From a bacterium (lineage in GTDB: Bacteria > Chloroflexota > Chloroflexia > Chloroflexales > Kallotenuaceae): a DNA stretch of 64,000 nucleotides. The notes under the pieces were generated by a model. It worked only from the letters and a program-made list of their open reading frames with translations, was not told where the DNA came from and searched no databases. The position numbers were made by a program, and so were the translations under genes. The stretch lies in contig JADDQE010000028.1 in the NCBI GenBank assembly GCA_016781525.1, positions 1 to 64,000 on the forward strand, written 5' to 3'. This document shows, piece after piece, positions 34,382 to 61,399 of the stretch (positions are counted from its first letter, which is position 1; the number at the start of each line of letters is the position of its first letter).

Positions 34382-34395
34382 GCCGCTTGTAACCG

Positions 34396-34500
34396 TGGTA
34401 CGGATAACTGGCGAATCACGTGGAAGACCACGAGGGAGTCCGTACAGCAAGAGTGCCGCTCGCCTGGGCCGGGTTCCGAAGATGATTCGGGACCTTTTCT
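34396..34500 (+). promoter_or_regulatory. ZTP (pfl) riboswitch with terminator controlling purH
   Basis: P1 pairs GTACGGA (34398-34404) with TCCGTAC (34439-34445). Within it lie the conserved AACTGGCGA (34406-34414) and a CGTGG/CCACG hairpin (34419-34432). The 3' domain has CCGCTCGCCTGGGC (34455-34468), the conserved pfl end. An overlapping terminator follows: GGTTCCGAA/TTCGGGACC (34472-34494) plus TTTT. ZTP/AICAR riboboxytide (Z nucleotides) accumulates when 10-formyl-THF is short; binding would block the terminator and raise PurH, which consumes AICAR. Confidence 0.88.
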
Positions 34501-34521: not shown

Positions 34522-36042
34522 ATGCGGGCGATCGTGAGTGTCTCGGATAAAACAGGGATTGCCGAGCTAGGGCGAGCGCTCAGCGAGCGCGGCGTGGAGA
34601 TATTTTCGACGGGCGGAACACTAAGCGCGCTGCATACGGCAGCCGTGCCAGCGCAGGGCATCAGCGAGCTCACCGGCTTTCCCGAAATCCTGGAAGGCCG
34701 TGTCAAAACGTTACATCCTGCGGTTCACGGCGGTATCCTGCATCGCCGCAACCGGCCCGCTGACGTCGCGGAGATTGGGGCTCATGGGATCGAGCCCATC
34801 GACCTCGTTGTCGTCAACCTGTACCCTTTCCGTGAGACGATTGCACAGCCCAATCTCCAGCTCCACGACGCGCTGGAGCAGATTGATATCGGGGGGCCCA
34901 CTCTGCTGCGGGCGGCGGCCAAGAACTTTCCGCATGTCCTCGTAATAGTCGATCCACGCGACTACCCACGCGTGTTGGCGGCGATCGATAGCCTTGCGAT
35001 CGACGAGCAGCTGCGGCGTGAGCTTGCCGCAAAGGCCTTTGCGCACACCGCGGCTTACGACAGCGCCATCGCGGCGTATCTCAGCCCCGAGCAGCTCCCG
35101 GCAACGCTTCCACTAAGCTTCGAAAAAGTACAGGATCTGCGCTACGGCGAAAACCCGCACCAGCCGGCCGCGTTCTACCGTGATCAAGCCAGCAACAAGG
35201 GAACGATCGCGGGGGCGCGACAGGTCCAAGGCAAGGAGCTTTCGTTCAACAATCTGCTCGACGCCGATGCAGCGCTGCATATCCTCCAGAGCTTCGATGC
35301 GCCGACCGTCACCATCTTGAAGCACACCAACCCCTGTGGCCTTGCCTCTCACCACGATCTTGTAGCAGCGCACGCGGCAGCTCGCTCGGGCGACCCAGTA
35401 TCGGCATTCGGCGGCATCGTCGGGATCAACCGGCCGGTTGACGGGCGGTTAGCCACGGCTATGCAGCGCTATTTTTATGAAGTGATCGTTGCGCCAGCCT
35501 TCGACGACGAGGCCCGTGCGATTTTCGCGGCGAAACCCAACCTCCGCTTGCTCGAGCTTGATATCGATGGGCCGGGTGGGCAAGCTTGGGACTATCGCCG
35601 GGTCAGCGGAGGGCTGCTGGTACAAGCGGCGGACGAAGTCGCTGCCGACGACCCGGGGTCCTGGCGCGTAGTTTCGGAGCATCAGCCGACGGCAGAGCAG
35701 CTTGAGGCGCTCTGGTTTGCTTGGCGTGCCTGCGCCGCAGTTAAGTCGAACGCCATCGTGCTTGTACAGGACCAGACATTGGTTGGGATGGGCGCCGGCC
35801 AGCCATCGCGGGTCGACTCGGTGCAGATCGCGGTCCGCAAGGCGGGCGACCGGGCAGCCGGCAGCGTGCTTGCGTCCGACGCATTCTTTCCGAAGCCGGA
35901 CGGTGTGGAAGCTGCGGCTGCCGCCGGTGTGGGTGCCCTGGTCCAGCCAGGCGGTTCTCAAGCCGACGACGAGGTCATCGCGACGGCCAATCGGCTGGGT
36001 CTAGCGCTTATGTTTACGGGCCGACGGCATTTTCGGCATTAG
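34522..36042 (+). CDS. purH: Bifunctional AICAR transformylase / IMP cyclohydrolase
   Basis: Last two steps of de novo purine synthesis, 506 residues. The N-terminal MGS-like cyclohydrolase domain (ALISV-type start MRAIVSVSDKTGIAELGRAL, STGGTLSAL, EILEGRVKTLHPAVHGGIL) is followed by the transformylase domain with DLRYGENPHQPAAFY, the catalytic KHTNPCGLA, SAFGGIVGINRPVD and the C-terminal RRHFRH end. AAAGGAG precedes the ATG. It is controlled by the ZTP riboswitch upstream. hisIE follows on the same strand; histidine synthesis releases AICAR, the PurH substrate, so the pairing makes metabolic sense. Confidence 0.97.
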   Translation: MRAIVSVSDKTGIAELGRALSERGVEIFSTGGTLSALHTAAVPAQGISELTGFPEILEGRVKTLHPAVHGGILHRRNRPADVAEIGAHGIEPIDLVVVNLYPFRETIAQPNLQLHDALEQIDIGGPTLLRAAAKNFPHVLVIVDPRDYPRVLAAIDSLAIDEQLRRELAAKAFAHTAAYDSAIAAYLSPEQLPATLPLSFEKVQDLRYGENPHQPAAFYRDQASNKGTIAGARQVQGKELSFNNLLDADAALHILQSFDAPTVTILKHTNPCGLASHHDLVAAHAAARSGDPVSAFGGIVGINRPVDGRLATAMQRYFYEVIVAPAFDDEARAIFAAKPNLRLLELDIDGPGGQAWDYRRVSGGLLVQAADEVAADDPGSWRVVSEHQPTAEQLEALWFAWRACAAVKSNAIVLVQDQTLVGMGAGQPSRVDSVQIAVRKAGDRAAGSVLASDAFFPKPDGVEAAAAAGVGALVQPGGSQADDEVIATANRLGLALMFTGRRHFRH

Positions 36043-50142: not shown

Positions 50143-50218
50143 TGGTGGGCCCCCTGGGACTCGAACCCAGAACCAGCGGATTAAGAGTCCGATGCTCTAC
50201 CGATTGAGCTAGAGGCCC
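50143..50218 (-). tRNA. tRNA-Lys (anticodon CTT), CCA encoded
   Basis: Cloverleaf on the minus strand: acceptor GGGCCTC/GGGGCCC with one G-T pair, D-loop GCTCAATCGGTAGAGC, anticodon loop CTCTTAA (CTT), T-loop GGTTCGAGTCC, discriminator A and encoded CCA (50145-50143). 76 nt. Confidence 0.97.
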
Positions 50219-56866: not shown

Positions 56867-57850
56867 ATGCATATTCTGACTCCACTCGTGGCGGCTTTTG
56901 TACCAACTGCGCTCTATACCTTGCTGCTGTGGTGGCTTGATCGCTACGAAAAAGAGCCGCTTAATCTCCTTGTCGTGACGTTTGTGTGGGGCGCGATACC
57001 CGCGCTGGTGCTTGCCCTCATGGCCGAGCTTGTGGTAGCCGCACGAGCCGTCGACCTACTTGGACCCGGCTCCGATACCACGGTCGTCGCCCCGGTGGTC
57101 GAAGAGCTCCTCAAAGCGCTCGTGCTCATCGGCATCTTTCTCTTCGCCCGGCGGGAATTCAATGGTGTGCTCGACGGTATTATCTATGGTGCACTCGTCG
57201 GCTTTGGCTTCGCCATGAGCGAGAATATTCTGTATTTCATGCGGTACCACGACCAGCTGGTAACCGTATGGCTCCTGCGGTCAGTCCTCTTCGGCCTAAA
57301 TCATGCGTTCTTTACCAGCATTGTGGGCATTGCGCTTGGGCTGGTCCGTTACGAGCGCCGGCGCTGGGTCGGTTATGTCGCGATTCCCATCGCGCTCTGG
57401 CTGGCAATGCTATTGCACGGCCTCCACAACACCTCCACGCAGCTTGGCCCGCTCGGCTTGTGCCTAGCGTGGATCGTCAACAGCGGGGGTGTGATGATCG
57501 TCCTCGCAACGGTGGTATTATCCCAGCGCCACGAGCTGAGCTGGCTCAACGCCGAGCTTGACGAGGAGCTAACGCGGGGCTTGATCAGCGTGGAGCAGTA
57601 CGAGCGGGTGCTAAATCCACCTCTGCGGTCAAAGGCCGAGGCCCAGGCGCTGCTCATGCAAGGCTGGCTGCACTTCCGGCGAACGCGACGCTTCCATCAT
57701 TTGCTGACCGAGCTTGCGTTCGTCAAGCACCAGCTACGCCAGGGCGACCACTACTGCTGTGAGGAGGATGTCGATGCGTTGCGCAGCGCCGTGGTTGCGG
57801 TTCGGCGACTCCTTAACGAGCCCGATTCGCACCATGCACTGCCGTCCTAG
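56867..57850 (+). CDS. PrsW-type intramembrane metalloprotease
   Basis: 327 residues, eight or so helices. The glutamate pair VEELLKALVLIG and later FAMSENILYF, FGLNHAFFTSIVG and LHGLHNTS carry the E/H metal-ligand motifs of the PrsW/CAAX-like family. PrsW proteases cleave membrane anti-sigma factors. The cytoplasmic C-terminal extension (about 225-327, helical, with LLTELAFVKHQLRQGDHYCCEEDVD) is a family feature here. No sigma/anti-sigma pair is adjacent, so the target is unknown. Confidence 0.88.
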   Translation: MHILTPLVAAFVPTALYTLLLWWLDRYEKEPLNLLVVTFVWGAIPALVLALMAELVVAARAVDLLGPGSDTTVVAPVVEELLKALVLIGIFLFARREFNGVLDGIIYGALVGFGFAMSENILYFMRYHDQLVTVWLLRSVLFGLNHAFFTSIVGIALGLVRYERRRWVGYVAIPIALWLAMLLHGLHNTSTQLGPLGLCLAWIVNSGGVMIVLATVVLSQRHELSWLNAELDEELTRGLISVEQYERVLNPPLRSKAEAQALLMQGWLHFRRTRRFHHLLTELAFVKHQLRQGDHYCCEEDVDALRSAVVAVRRLLNEPDSHHALPS

Positions 57851-57913: not shown

Positions 57914-58468
57914 TTACCGCATCGCTGCTAGCAGCTCATCATTGGATGGCAGATCGCTCATCCGCAGCTGCCGTTGAGCGTAGCGTACGATCCCAGTGGC
58001 ATCGACGACGAAAACCCCGCCAAGCTGCAGCATGTCTTGATTCGTGCTGCGCGACACGCCGTGCGCCAAGATTGCCTGCATGCCGCGTCGTGCACTCGCG
58101 AGGCTGACCTCACGAGTCAAGCTGACCCGGCCCAGTCCATAGGCTGTGTACGCGACGCGCCGTGCGTCGGCTAAGAGCGGAAACGGCAGCTCCAGCTCCT
58201 GCTGTAACTGCTTACTACGAGCCACAGTACCTTGCCCAATTGCCACAATCCCCCGATCATTCTGTTGAAAGCGTTCCCAGTCATCACGCAGCCGCACCAG
58301 CTGCTCAATGCAGTGCGGTCAACCAAAATGACGCACAAAGACCAGCGCTGTAGGTCGCACGACCCAGAAGGATGACAACCTAACGACCTCGCCCTCGGCG
58401 TTGACCAACGTGATGTCGGGCGCTGCACTGCCCAGCTCAACCGATTGTTCGCGCTCTCGCTCCGTCAT
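57914..58468 (-). CDS. Peroxiredoxin-like selenoprotein (Sec at codon 50, TGA 58321-58319)
   Basis: 184 residues if the in-frame TGA is read as selenocysteine. ATG 58468 follows GGAGGA. The N-terminal half, LGSAAPDITLVNAEGEVVRL and ALVFVRHFG, and the second half, EQLVRLRDDWERF through LGGVFVVDATGIVRYAQR, form one AhpC/TSA (Prx-like2) thioredoxin fold. TGA falls exactly where relatives have the first cysteine of FVRHFGCPFC-type motifs, giving U-P-H-C. The downstream open frame alone (from 58297) would lack the active site. No frameshift or other stop occurs. Selenocysteine machinery is not in this window. Confidence 0.8.
58288..58318 (-). promoter_or_regulatory. Candidate bacterial SECIS element
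   Basis: Immediately 3' of the TGA on the minus strand. A GCAGC/GCTGC stem (58304-58300 with 58292-58288) holds the 7-nt loop TGGTGCG, G in the second position, starting 19 nt after the TGA. This fits the usual bacterial spacing and loop-G rule. An alternative CCGCA/TGCGG stem shares the region. Confidence 0.55.
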
Positions 58469-58628
58469 GGGGTCCTCCACCCAGCAAACTTCTAGCTGTA
58501 GGGTATTCTACCTCAAGTTTTGCACATGCTTTGCACAGGAATATTTTTTTGTAAACTCGGCGTCCAATGAAGACACTCCCCCTACGACGACGGCGAGCAG
58601 CTCCGGAGGAGAAACACGTGGCGGAGTG

Positions 58629-58637
58629 TGGCATAAT
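58629..58637 (+). promoter_or_regulatory. Extended -10 promoter of the J-domain gene
   Basis: TGGCATAAT (CATAAT at 58632-58637) about 55 nt before the ATG at 58698. Confidence 0.45.
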
Positions 58638-58697
58638 ATATGTACGCTTTCTCACGAGGGTAGAAGGAACCGTTGCCACGTTTCGGCTAGCTCTGCC

Positions 58698-59219
58698 ATG
58701 ACTGATTGGTTTAGCCATTGCCACACATTGACCGAGGCGCGCCTCGAATACCGGCGTCTGTGCTTCGAGCATCACCCCGACCGTGGTGGAAGCACGCTGG
58801 TAATGCAGGCGATCAACACCGCCTACGCAGAATTCAAGAACCAACGGCTGCGGGCACGGCCTGCCCGCACAGTCCCACGCAGCACGTGGCGTCGACCACC
58901 ACGAGAGAGGCCGCAGAATGTCGCGCCGGAGTCGAGTACCGCGGGGCCTGAAGCACCGCAGCAAATACTTCATTCACGGGATGAGATCCAACGGCTCTGG
59001 GAGGCGGCGGGGTGGCAGCCGTTAGCGAACGGCAGTCTCGGGCGGCGGGTATGGGATCACACGATAATGCTTGTGCGGCACCCGGCTCCTAAGTACCAAG
59101 GCGCATGGTTCGTCCTCATCGACGATGTTTTCAGCCCCTACTTCTACAACAGCCGTCAGGAGGCCGAGACAGCTGCCTTCGATCTGCTCTACGACAAGGT
59201 CAAGTACCTGCCACGCTAA
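58698..59219 (+). CDS. Short J-domain (DnaJ-like) protein
   Basis: 173 residues from ATG 58698. Residues 1-50 are a compact J domain: TLTEARLEYRRLCFEHHPDRGG with the essential HPD. A basic, proline-rich linker follows, then a conserved-looking C-terminal domain (EIQRLWEAAGWQPL, GRRVWDHTIMLVRHP, YQGAWFVLIDDVFSPYFYNS). HPD stimulates Hsp70 ATPase. The C-terminal domain probably picks the client; it is not the zinc-finger DnaJ type. Upstream longer readings from 58401 overlap the selenoprotein start and are rejected. Confidence 0.85.
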   Translation: MTDWFSHCHTLTEARLEYRRLCFEHHPDRGGSTLVMQAINTAYAEFKNQRLRARPARTVPRSTWRRPPRERPQNVAPESSTAGPEAPQQILHSRDEIQRLWEAAGWQPLANGSLGRRVWDHTIMLVRHPAPKYQGAWFVLIDDVFSPYFYNSRQEAETAAFDLLYDKVKYLPR

Positions 59220-59558: not shown

Positions 59559-59632
59559 GAATGGGGTACACTATCGCAGCCACCCCCGAGCAATCGCGGC
59601 TGGTCGTCCCTCGCTTTAGCAAGGAGTTTCTG

Positions 59633-59668
59633 ATGGAGCGTGTCTCTTTCAACCGCAGCATCTACTAG
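59633..59668 (+). CDS. 11-codon leader peptide MERVSFNRSIY of the ABC-F gene
   Basis: Excellent ribosome site AAGGAG (59621-59626) with 6-nt spacing before ATG 59633; stops at TAG 59666-59668. It lies 36 nt before the ABC-F ATG. Codons 3-5 overlap the first segment of the attenuator, so a stalled ribosome would remove it from pairing. Confidence 0.7.
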   Translation: MERVSFNRSIY

Positions 59669-59703
59669 CACGGAGACACACGTGTGTCTCCCAAAGGAGG
59701 CAC
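59640..59703 (+). promoter_or_regulatory. erm-type translational attenuator of the ABC-F gene
   Basis: Segment 1 GTGTCTC (59640-59646, in the leader ORF) pairs with GAGACAC in segment 2 (59673-59679). Segment 2 GGAGACACAC (59672-59681) alternatively pairs perfectly with segment 3 GTGTGTCTCC (59682-59691). Segment 3 GTGTCTCC (59684-59691) can instead pair with GGAGGCAC (59696-59703), an 8-bp stem with loop CAAA that buries the Shine-Dalgarno AAAGGAGG (59693-59700). Confidence 0.72.
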
Positions 59704-59704
59704 C

Positions 59705-61399
59705 ATGCTTCAGATTCAGAAACTGCGTAAAAGCTATGGCATAGCGACCGTTCTCGCCGACATCAACTGCGTCATCAACGACGGCGAACACGTTGGCCTC
59801 ATCGGCCCTAACGGCGTCGGCAAATCCACTCTCTTACGGTGCATCATCGGACAGGAGCAGCCGGATAGCGGTACGCTCACCTTCTCGCCGCCAAACCTCA
59901 GGATCGGCTATCTCGCGCAAGCGCTCGACGCTCTCGGGGAGCAAACTGTTCGGCACGCTATCGCCGAGGCACAGGCGGATGTCGTCGCCGCGGAGGCTGC
60001 ATTACAGCAAGCCGCCGATAAGCTCGCAGCTGCCGTCGACCTTGAGGCAGCGATGGCCGAGTACGACAGCGCGCTTGCGCGCTTTGAGGCGGTGGGCGGA
60101 TACGAGCGCGAGCATCGCGCCGCGGCCGTGCTGGAAGGCCTGGGGCTGGCAGAGATCGACCAAGGACAACTGGTACTGAGTCTCAGCGGAGGCCAGAAAA
60201 CTCGATTGGGACTCGCAACGTTGCTGCTGCGCGAGCCCGATCTACTGCTGCTCGACGAGCCGACGAACCATCTAGACGTGGAAGCGTTGACCTGGCTCGA
60301 AGGCTTTGTCCAAGGCTATCCACATACAGTCCTGGTCGTCTCCCACGACCGTGCATTCCTCGACCAGACGGTGGCCCGTATCCTCTACCTCGACCCAGAC
60401 ACACGTACGCTGAAAAGCTACGCCGGAAACTACAGCGACTACGTCGAGGCGCGCGAACATGAGCACGCGCTCCACGTCGAGAGCTACAAGCAGCAGCAGG
60501 AGTATATTGGGCGGGTGCAGCAGGATATCGTACGGCTCAAAGCGCAGGCGCTCAACGTGGAGCTCAGCAGCACATCGACTGATCGCGATGCAAAATTCTT
60601 TCTATCCGGCAAGGGCGGATCCAAAAAGGTTGCGCGCAAGGCGCGTGCGCGCGAACGTAAGCTGGATCGTTACCTCGAATCCGATGAGCGCGTCGACAAG
60701 CCCAAGCAGCACTGGAACCTTAAGCTCGATTTCGGGCCACCACCGCCGAGTGGACGAGCGGTTCTGCGGTTGGACAACGTCGGATTTGGCTATCAGGGGG
60801 CGCATCCGCTGTTTGAGCATGTGTCGGTGGATGTGCAGTGGGGCGAGCGCGTAGCAATCGTCGGGCCGAATGGCGCCGGGAAGACGACATTGTTACGCCT
60901 GATTCAAGGTAAACTACAGCCGCAGCAGGGCACCATTCGCCTCGGCACGAACGTGCGGCTGGGCATCCTGGCACAAGAGCATGAGACGCTGGATGTTCGC
61001 AGAACGGTGCTTGAGACGGCGCTACATGAGCGTCCGATGAGCGAGACGGAGGCCCGCAGCTTCTTGCACTTCTTTTTGTTCGGAGGCGACAGCGTCTTTC
61101 GCCGTATAGGGGAGTGCTCGCTTGGCGAGCGCAGCCGCTTGCAGCTCGGCTTGCTGGTGCTACGCGGCTGTAACCTGCTGCTGCTCGACGAGCCGCTCAA
61201 CCATCTCGACATCGAGGGTCGCGAGCACTTTGAGGCTGCGCTGGAGGCATTTGAAGGCACGGTGATCGCCGTCGCGCATGATCGTACGTTTCTCCACAAC
61301 TTCGCGGAGCGCGTGGTCGAAGTTCGTGAGGGAGCGGCGCATGTCTTTGAGAGTACCTACGAAGGCTACCTTTGGGAAAGGCAAAAGCGCCGCTCATAG
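59705..61399 (+). CDS. ABC-F family ATPase (ribosome-associated, possible antibiotic resistance)
   Basis: 564 residues from ATG 59705. Two ABC domains: first P-loop GLIGPNGVGKSTLL, signature LSLSGGQKTRLGLATLLL, Walker B LLLLDEPTNHLD; second P-loop AIVGPNGAGKTTLL, degenerate signature CSLGERSRLQLGLL, Walker B LLLLDEPLNHLD. The interdomain linker (about 245-330) is long, basic and helical (KGGSKKVARKARARERKLDRYL). No membrane domain. ABC-F proteins bind the ribosomal E site and either regulate translation or displace antibiotics; the attenuator favours the latter role. Confidence 0.93.
   Translation: MLQIQKLRKSYGIATVLADINCVINDGEHVGLIGPNGVGKSTLLRCIIGQEQPDSGTLTFSPPNLRIGYLAQALDALGEQTVRHAIAEAQADVVAAEAALQQAADKLAAAVDLEAAMAEYDSALARFEAVGGYEREHRAAAVLEGLGLAEIDQGQLVLSLSGGQKTRLGLATLLLREPDLLLLDEPTNHLDVEALTWLEGFVQGYPHTVLVVSHDRAFLDQTVARILYLDPDTRTLKSYAGNYSDYVEAREHEHALHVESYKQQQEYIGRVQQDIVRLKAQALNVELSSTSTDRDAKFFLSGKGGSKKVARKARARERKLDRYLESDERVDKPKQHWNLKLDFGPPPPSGRAVLRLDNVGFGYQGAHPLFEHVSVDVQWGERVAIVGPNGAGKTTLLRLIQGKLQPQQGTIRLGTNVRLGILAQEHETLDVRRTVLETALHERPMSETEARSFLHFFLFGGDSVFRRIGECSLGERSRLQLGLLVLRGCNLLLLDEPLNHLDIEGREHFEAALEAFEGTVIAVAHDRTFLHNFAERVVEVREGAAHVFESTYEGYLWERQKRRS

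What the first reader, a model, noticed from the sequence alone, without database searches (positions are those of the whole stretch)
59621..59707. erm-like leader peptide and four-segment RNA switch controlling an ABC-F ATPase
The sequence shows a leader ORF (11 codons, strong ribosome site) and four short segments with exact mutual complementarity: 1:2 (7 bp), 2:3 (10 bp, perfect palindrome), 3:4 (8 bp, burying the ABC-F Shine-Dalgarno). This is the arrangement known for ermC and some ABC-F resistance genes: 1:2 plus 3:4 is off; a ribosome stalled in the leader frees 2 to pair with 3 and opens the start site. The leader peptide MERVSFNRSIY does not resemble any I know. It implies drug- or stall-induced expression of a ribosome-protection protein in a probable environmental Chloroflexota.
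Basis: partly seen in the sequence, partly recalled or inferred. Interest (0 to 1): 0.9.

Follow-up and report, generated by a model that had tools for sequence, protein, structure and literature searches.

The report
Short-leader RNA switch guarding ABC-F gene
A tiny upstream gene and the start site of a probable ribosome-rescue gene are folded onto each other in the messenger RNA, so that a ribosome stuck at the beginning of the tiny gene would switch the rescue gene on; relatives across a whole bacterial phylum keep this geometry while the tiny peptide itself drifts freely in the window's own lineage.

Summary
In detail: an 11-codon leader with a strong Shine-Dalgarno site and segments 1-4 at the stated places. 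No terminator was found between leader and ABC-F and no Rfam family fits. Leader-SD helices recur across 51 orthologous loci of the phylum (0/20,000 permutations reach the observed score), with leaders of 2-14 codons; other ABC-Fs lack them. The leader peptide is not conserved in the window's order. What is conserved is position: segment 1 ends where a start-codon ribosome would end, segment 2 where a terminating ribosome would end. Folding with a masked ribosome predicts start = SD opened, stop = SD reclosed (9/9 four-segment loci). Best reading: a translational attenuator of an ARE-like ABC-F that senses ribosomes arrested on the leader's first codons, probably by PTC drugs, not an ermC-style arrest peptide. 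The kind is known (vmlR, cplR, are5, toiL); this family, its terminator-free form and the start/stop ruler geometry look new. Drug induction and resistance are inferred, not shown.

The parts
59567..59572 (+). -10-like hexamer TACACT (TATAAT-like in relatives), about 7 nt before the 5' hairpin
   Evidence: Read by eye at a similar place in relatives; the consensus promoter scan found no sigma-70 site here, so inferred
59580..59603 (+). Conserved 5' hairpin CCA-C-C-CC-CGA-GCAA-UCG-CG-GC-UGG at the presumed 5' end of the mRNA
   Evidence: 92 of 96 cells are standard pairs in 12 relatives, shuffles 84.5+-1.7, 0/10,000 (alignment made by hand with the structure in view); motif occurs once in own genome
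59621..59626 (+). Leader Shine-Dalgarno AAGGAG
   Evidence: SD duplex -8.0 kcal/mol; an SD precedes the leader in most orthologues
59633..59668 (+). Leader ORF MERVSFNRSIY* (11 codons)
   Evidence: same length but different peptide in L009-L013
59640..59649 (+). Segment 1, anti-SD inside the leader (+8..+17); pairs with 59694-59703 (1:4) or, by its first 7 nt, with 59673-59679 (1:2)
59672..59679 (+). Segment 2 (+40..+47), just after the leader stop; pairs with segment 3 or 1
59684..59691 (+). Segment 3; pairs with segment 2 (leaves SD open) or segment 4 (closes SD)
59693..59703 (+). Segment 4 with the ABC-F Shine-Dalgarno AAAGGAGG
59705..61399 (+). ABC-F ATPase, two ABC domains and linker; antibiotic-resistance subfamily not proven
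   Evidence: NCBIfam NF000355 417 bits against cut-off 380; AlphaFold2 pLDDT 85; PDB matches PoxtA, EttA, VmlR2

Best explanation
A cis-acting translational attenuator of an ARE-like ABC-F gene that reads where a ribosome stands on a short leader. With no ribosome on the leader, the leader codons (segment 1) pair with the ABC-F SD (segment 4), or 3:4 forms, and the gene is off. A ribosome arrested on about the first seven leader codons covers segment 1; segment 2 keeps segment 3 and the SD is freed. A ribosome that finishes the leader and stands at the stop codon covers segment 2, so 3 captures 4 and the SD closes again. The position of the arrest, not the peptide sequence, is what matters; the likeliest trigger is a peptidyl-transferase-centre drug of the pleuromutilin/lincosamide/streptogramin A type that holds ribosomes at start codons. 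Shown: sequence parts, helices, conservation and geometry. Computed: fold energies and masking. Inferred: that ribosomes stall, the drug class, and ribosome protection.
For: Segments verified; whole fold z -3.4; no terminator found between leader and gene. Leader-SD helix over 51 orthologues: matched score 18.4 against 13.0+-0.41 when leaders are permuted among loci, 0/20,000; window order alone 4/20,000. A scan without hand-picked starts: 47% of 57 orthologues against 2% of shuffles and 1/23 other ABC-Fs. The helix mostly starts at leader +7..+15 whether the leader has 2 or 11 codons. All six loci L001, L009-L013 have 11-codon leaders with segment 2 at +40/+41 and largely different peptides. 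Masked fold of the window: SD unpaired probability 0.03 free, 0.43-0.49 with P-site at codons 1-7, about 0.25 at codons 10-stop; reclosing at the stop in 9/9 four-segment loci, 0/30 shuffles in 7 of 9. L017/L019: segment 3 reads C for U while segments 2 and 4 read G for A. Start-codon or initiation stalling on mini-uORFs of ABC-F genes is documented for vmlR, are5sc and tiaA and proposed for cplR (PMC9226507, PMC12421871, PMC10201436), and uORF-RBS pairing undone by a start-codon ribosome for toiL (PMC12121999).
Against: No expression, toeprint or drug data. NF000355 also passes its cut-off on paralogues L002 and L023, so it does not prove antibiotic resistance. The window's own leader-SD duplex is not significant by itself. 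Some orthologues show weak 1:4 (L010, L012, L016, L019) or no leader found (L043, L045, L049, L056, L073, L078). With a start ribosome the SD is only about 45% free in the window because of a small local hairpin. Reclosing in L017 and L044 is matched by 9/30 and 3/30 shuffles.
Confidence: 0.7

Rival explanations
1. ermC-style arrest peptide: a macrolide-type drug recognises a specific nascent leader peptide and stalls the ribosome at one codon; RNA switching then works as in ermC.
For: Four-segment architecture is the ermC one and early-codon occupancy opens the SD.
Against: Leader peptides of the window's relatives are largely unrelated (MERVFFDPNLI, MFTTPFFHAAY, MTGRFLIFKAH, MTSVSNIYPML) and leaders shrink to 2-7 codons elsewhere, too short for most tunnel-sensing arrest; any stall at codons 1-7 suffices in the model.
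Confidence: 0.08
2. Plain translational coupling: ordinary translation of the leader keeps the ABC-F SD open in proportion to ribosome loading, with no drug sensing.
For: Leader SD is strong and leader translation must open 1:4; in mini-ORF relatives start- and stop-ribosomes open the SD alike.
Against: In the four-segment loci, including the window, a ribosome at the leader stop recloses the SD in 9/9, so finished translation would favour OFF; nine f19/f51 relatives place an intrinsic terminator between leader and gene, the usual sign of induced attenuation.
Confidence: 0.12
3. The attenuator is real but the ABC-F is a housekeeping or translation-quality factor, so the signal is general stalling or slow initiation rather than an antibiotic.
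For: Subfamily test is not specific (paralogues also pass NF000355); closest folds include EttA and YbiT as well as PoxtA and VmlR2.
Against: Second-best family in five of the six leader-bearing proteins scanned is TlrC/CarA/OleB/SrmB, against EttA for the two paralogues; leader control of this kind is typical of resistance ABC-Fs in the papers read.
Confidence: 0.2
4. The 20-bp palindrome (segments 2-3) is a DNA operator for a repressor, and leader and pairings are incidental.
For: Perfect palindrome GGAGACACACGTGTGTCTCC between leader and gene.
Against: Arm spacing varies 4, 4, 5, 6, 5, 8 nt in relatives, which breaks operator phasing, while arms stay complementary to the SD segment; the palindrome is absent in most orthologues that keep leader and leader-SD helix.
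Confidence: 0.02

Closest known systems
vmlR (B. subtilis) and cplR (C. difficile) uORF attenuators, PMC9226507 and PMC10201436
   Same: ABC-F gene, short SD-led uORF (MIN, MRI), sequence-tolerant in vmlR, SD of the main gene buried, induction by drugs that arrest initiating ribosomes
   Different: Those also use an intrinsic terminator; in the window no terminator was found and the leader itself pairs with the SD. The terminator form exists in f19/f51 relatives.
toiL-topAI (E. coli), PMC12121999
   Same: uORF sequence pairs with the downstream ribosome-binding site and a ribosome arrested at the uORF start codon frees it
   Different: Different gene (toxin-antitoxin), further stall sites inside the uORF, Rho-dependent termination in the gene; no 2:3/3:4 module described in the passages read
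are5sc / tiaA uORFs (Streptomyces), PMC12421871
   Same: ARE5 ABC-F genes with MLV or MVGDDDISG leaders, start-codon stalling by lincomycin, tiamulin, pristinamycin IIA and not by erythromycin
   Different: Predicted terminator/anti-terminator switch; Streptomyces
ermC translational attenuator (from general knowledge)
   Same: Four segments, 1:2 + 3:4 off, 2:3 on, SD in segment 4
   Different: ermC encodes a methyltransferase and its leader peptide sequence matters for macrolide arrest; here 1:4 also pairs and the peptide is unconserved
trp-type attenuator logic (from general knowledge)
   Same: Ribosome at the leader stop covers segment 2 and lets 3:4 form; early stall leaves 2:3
   Different: There 3:4 is a terminator and the signal is uncharged tRNA; here 3:4 closes a ribosome-binding site

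Membership tests
ermC-type four-segment translational attenuator | Short leader ORF with its own SD before the regulated gene | tested here: met
ermC-type four-segment translational attenuator | Mutually exclusive 1:2, 2:3, 3:4 with the SD in segment 4 | tested here: met
   three-way changes in L017/L019
ermC-type four-segment translational attenuator | Leader peptide sequence conserved as a drug-specific arrest signal | tested here: not met
   length 11 kept in the nearest relatives, sequence not
ermC-type four-segment translational attenuator | Induction by macrolides | not testable with these tools
   No expression data
PLSA-type ARE-ABCF mini-uORF attenuator (vmlR, cplR, are5) | SD-led short uORF upstream of an ABC-F gene, sequence-tolerant | tested here: met
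PLSA-type ARE-ABCF mini-uORF attenuator (vmlR, cplR, are5) | Intrinsic terminator/antiterminator in the leader | tested here: not met
   None found in the window between leader and gene; present in 9 of 11 f19/f51 relatives
PLSA-type ARE-ABCF mini-uORF attenuator (vmlR, cplR, are5) | Start-codon stalling by pleuromutilin, lincosamide, streptogramin A | not testable with these tools
   Geometry only
toiL-type direct uORF-RBS clamp | uORF codons pair with the downstream SD | tested here: met
Antibiotic-resistance (ARE) ABC-F protein | Two ABC domains with linker, ABC-F fold | tested here: met
Antibiotic-resistance (ARE) ABC-F protein | Falls in a resistance-specific protein family | tested here: inconclusive
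   NF000355 417>380, but paralogues also pass
Antibiotic-resistance (ARE) ABC-F protein | Raises resistance to a ribosome drug | not testable with these tools
   Needs MIC tests
Any Rfam RNA family | Covariance-model match | tested here: not met
   0 matches at E<=1; none here at gathering threshold

The most novel reading that the evidence does not exclude
The leader is a two-position ribosome ruler: segment 1 ends at the 3' edge of a start-codon ribosome and segment 2 at the 3' edge of a stop-codon ribosome, so start occupancy switches the gene on and stop occupancy actively switches it off, with leader length and spacing under selection and the peptide free. A phylum-wide ABC-F lineage diverged from one leader-SD clamp into terminator-assisted, mini-ORF and four-segment forms.
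Probability: 0.4. Interest if true: 0.7.

Novelty: new variant of a known kind. Interest (0 to 1): 0.56.

Why it matters
If true, it is an ABC-F attenuator family in what appears to be Chloroflexota, a largely environmental phylum for which the paper searches here found no such system. It would suggest that inducible ribosome protection is old outside Gram-positive bacteria, and it offers a clean test of whether an attenuator can sense ribosome position independently of the nascent peptide. One gene family shows terminator-assisted and terminator-free versions side by side, so the order of steps in attenuator evolution can be examined.

Tried and rejected
NF000355 as proof of resistance was dropped after paralogues passed it. 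The DNA-operator reading of the palindrome was rejected on variable arm spacing. The SD-core picker chose AGGA rather than AAAGGAGG in the window; one search repeats the test with a fixed SD window and agrees. MAFFT misaligned the bulge of the 5' hairpin, so pairs were counted on an alignment made by hand, which leans towards the structure. Amino-acid-starvation sensing was set aside because no residue stands out in the leaders (by eye). A plasmid search found one distant Paenibacillus protein at 36%; no sign of mobility.

Full report
Observation. The leader is ATG 59633 to TAG 59666-59668, MERVSFNRSIY, with SD AAGGAG 59621-59626. Segment pairs 1:2 (7 bp), 2:3 (8 bp counted, 10 bp if the central ACGU closes) and 3:4 (8 bp, one G-U) are correct. 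One pairing was missed: 1:4, 59640-59649 with 59694-59703, 10 bp. The minimum-energy fold of 59590-59730 nests 2:3 inside 1:4 and extends further, pairing the leader's start region with the first ABC-F codons (-52.1 kcal/mol, z -3.4, 1/200 shuffles). On the bare stretch, 1:4+2:3 is -22.9, 1:2+3:4 is -20.7 and 2:3 alone is -13.7 kcal/mol. No intrinsic terminator was found between leader and gene and no Rfam family matches.

Gene. The ORF 59705-61399 is an ABC-F ATPase. NF000355 scores 417 against a cut-off of 380, but paralogues L002 and L023 also pass, so that model does not prove antibiotic resistance. In five of the six leader-bearing proteins scanned, the window included, the second-best family is TlrC/CarA/OleB/SrmB; for L044 it is EttA, as for the two paralogues. 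AlphaFold2 gives pLDDT 85, and the best PDB folds are PoxtA, EttA, VmlR2 and YbiT. The drug class cannot be read from this; the linker tip varies among orthologues.

Relatives. The window is G000:C102. Orthologues at 60-81% identity were found in 14 further genomes of the order, more in the class and phylum. A protein tree (N-terminal 270 residues) puts the leader-bearing proteins mainly in a group of 56 rows (support 87/93), of which 49 carried the leader label when the tree was drawn; two of the unlabelled rows, L046 and L047, turned out to have leaders farther upstream (MIISL*, MVNSL*). The group of 14 rows that includes family f3 and the group of 8 other ABC-Fs carried none. The label needs at least 9 changes on the tree, so gain and loss are not settled.

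Leader-SD clamp. For 51 loci the best helix between leader +1..+30 and the ABC-F -24..-1 was scored and compared with permuted leader/SD partners: matched 18.4, permuted 13.0+-0.41, 0/20,000 (window order 17.6 against 15.1, 4/20,000; other class-level members 20.7 against 13.6, 0/20,000; terminator-type 4/20,000; five remaining phylum loci not significant). Leader starts in that test were chosen by hand from SD and stop; a scan over all SD-led mini-ORFs gave score 18 or more in 47% of 57 orthologues, 2% of shuffles, and 1 of 23 other ABC-Fs. In the clear cases the helix lies between about +7 and +23 whatever the leader length, so a ribosome on the start codon would cover most of it. Leader lengths run from 2 to 14 codons. 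Outside the window's order many leaders begin MTD, with all four Thr codons, both Asp codons and three start codons used (17 loci): synonymous change, hence evidence that such leaders are translated.

Four-segment module. Six loci (L001, L009-L013) share an 11-codon leader, segment 2 at +40/+41, segments 2/3/4 nearly invariant, and largely different peptides. L017 (14 codons) and L019 (12 codons) have the same module in other letters: where segment 3 reads C instead of U, segment 2 and, at one position, segment 4 read G instead of A. L044, an 11-codon leader from another family, has a 5-bp version read by eye. Arm spacing 2-3 varies 4-8 nt, which argues against a DNA operator.

Masking model. 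A ribosome was modelled as an unpaired stretch from -14 to about +16 of its P-site codon. In the window the SD is unpaired with probability 0.03 when free, 0.43-0.49 with P-site at codons 1-7, and about 0.25 at codons 10 to stop (short SD core). With a fixed SD window the energy to open the SD is, on average over nine four-segment loci, 8.1 free, 4.8 with a start ribosome and 10.4 kcal/mol with a ribosome on the last sense codon; reclosing by at least 2 kcal/mol in 9/9, against 3/42 for other loci. Shuffling the stretch between stop and SD removes it (0/30 in seven loci; 9/30 in L017, 3/30 in L044). Segment 1 ends at +17 and segment 2 at +47 in the window, the expected 3' edges of ribosomes at codon 1 and codon 11 (edges of +16 to +18 for start-codon ribosomes are reported in PMC12121999, and PMC9226507). 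This is a static model; energies are computed, not measured.

Other leader features. A hairpin with covarying stems lies about 7 nt after a -10-like hexamer in the order (92/96 standard pairs, shuffles 84.5+-1.7, 0/10,000, hand-made alignment). Its role is unknown; protection of the mRNA 5' end is a guess. In nine of eleven f19/f51 loci an intrinsic terminator follows the mini-leader (L061 also by the terminator scan), so transcription attenuation is likely there.

Comparison. Initiation-stage or start-codon stalling on mini-uORFs of ABC-F genes is reported for vmlR (PMC9226507) and are5sc/tiaA (PMC12421871), and uORF-dependent induction by retapamulin and lincomycin for cplR (PMC10201436). 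uORF-RBS pairing released by start-codon ribosomes is proposed with SHAPE and ribosome profiling for toiL-topAI (PMC12121999). The searches made here found no paper on such a system in Chloroflexota. The label is therefore a new variant of a known kind.

Limits. Most relatives look like fragmented draft genomes by their contig counts; no expression data were examined; permutation tests ignore phylogeny, although close relatives sharing helices raise the permuted scores, which works against the result. Confidence in the best explanation is 0.70, with the drug class as its weakest step.

Noticed in passing
window 34394-34476 +: ZTP riboswitch (RF01750, 55.9 bits) about 45 nt upstream of a 506-aa ORF at 34522-36042 that looks like PurH by reading.
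   Followed up: no
window 50146-50218 -: tRNA gene by Rfam; anticodon not read.
   Followed up: no
window 56867-57850 +: PrsW-family intramembrane protease (PF13367) upstream of the locus.
   Followed up: no
window 58401-59219 +: ORF without a Pfam match whose translation contains an HPDRGG motif as in J-domains.
   Followed up: no
L046, L047, L050 upstream of the ABC-F: A repeated GTCATCCTGAGCGAAGCGAAG-like element sits between terminator and SD without touching the leader-SD helix CCTGTAG/CTACAGG; looks like an inserted repeat.
   Followed up: no
L029-L033, 5' of the leader: Another family also has a hairpin near the presumed transcript start (GAGACGG/CCGTCTC in L033) with unrelated sequence.
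   Followed up: partly
L088: A member of a small side group has an MLS* mini-ORF with GGGCGATC/GATCGCCC complementarity downstream and a T-rich stretch (read by eye).
   Followed up: no
G000:C65 and G000:C239 (L002, L003): Two further ABC-F paralogues in the same genome (36-39% identity) show no comparable leader-SD clamp.
   Followed up: yes
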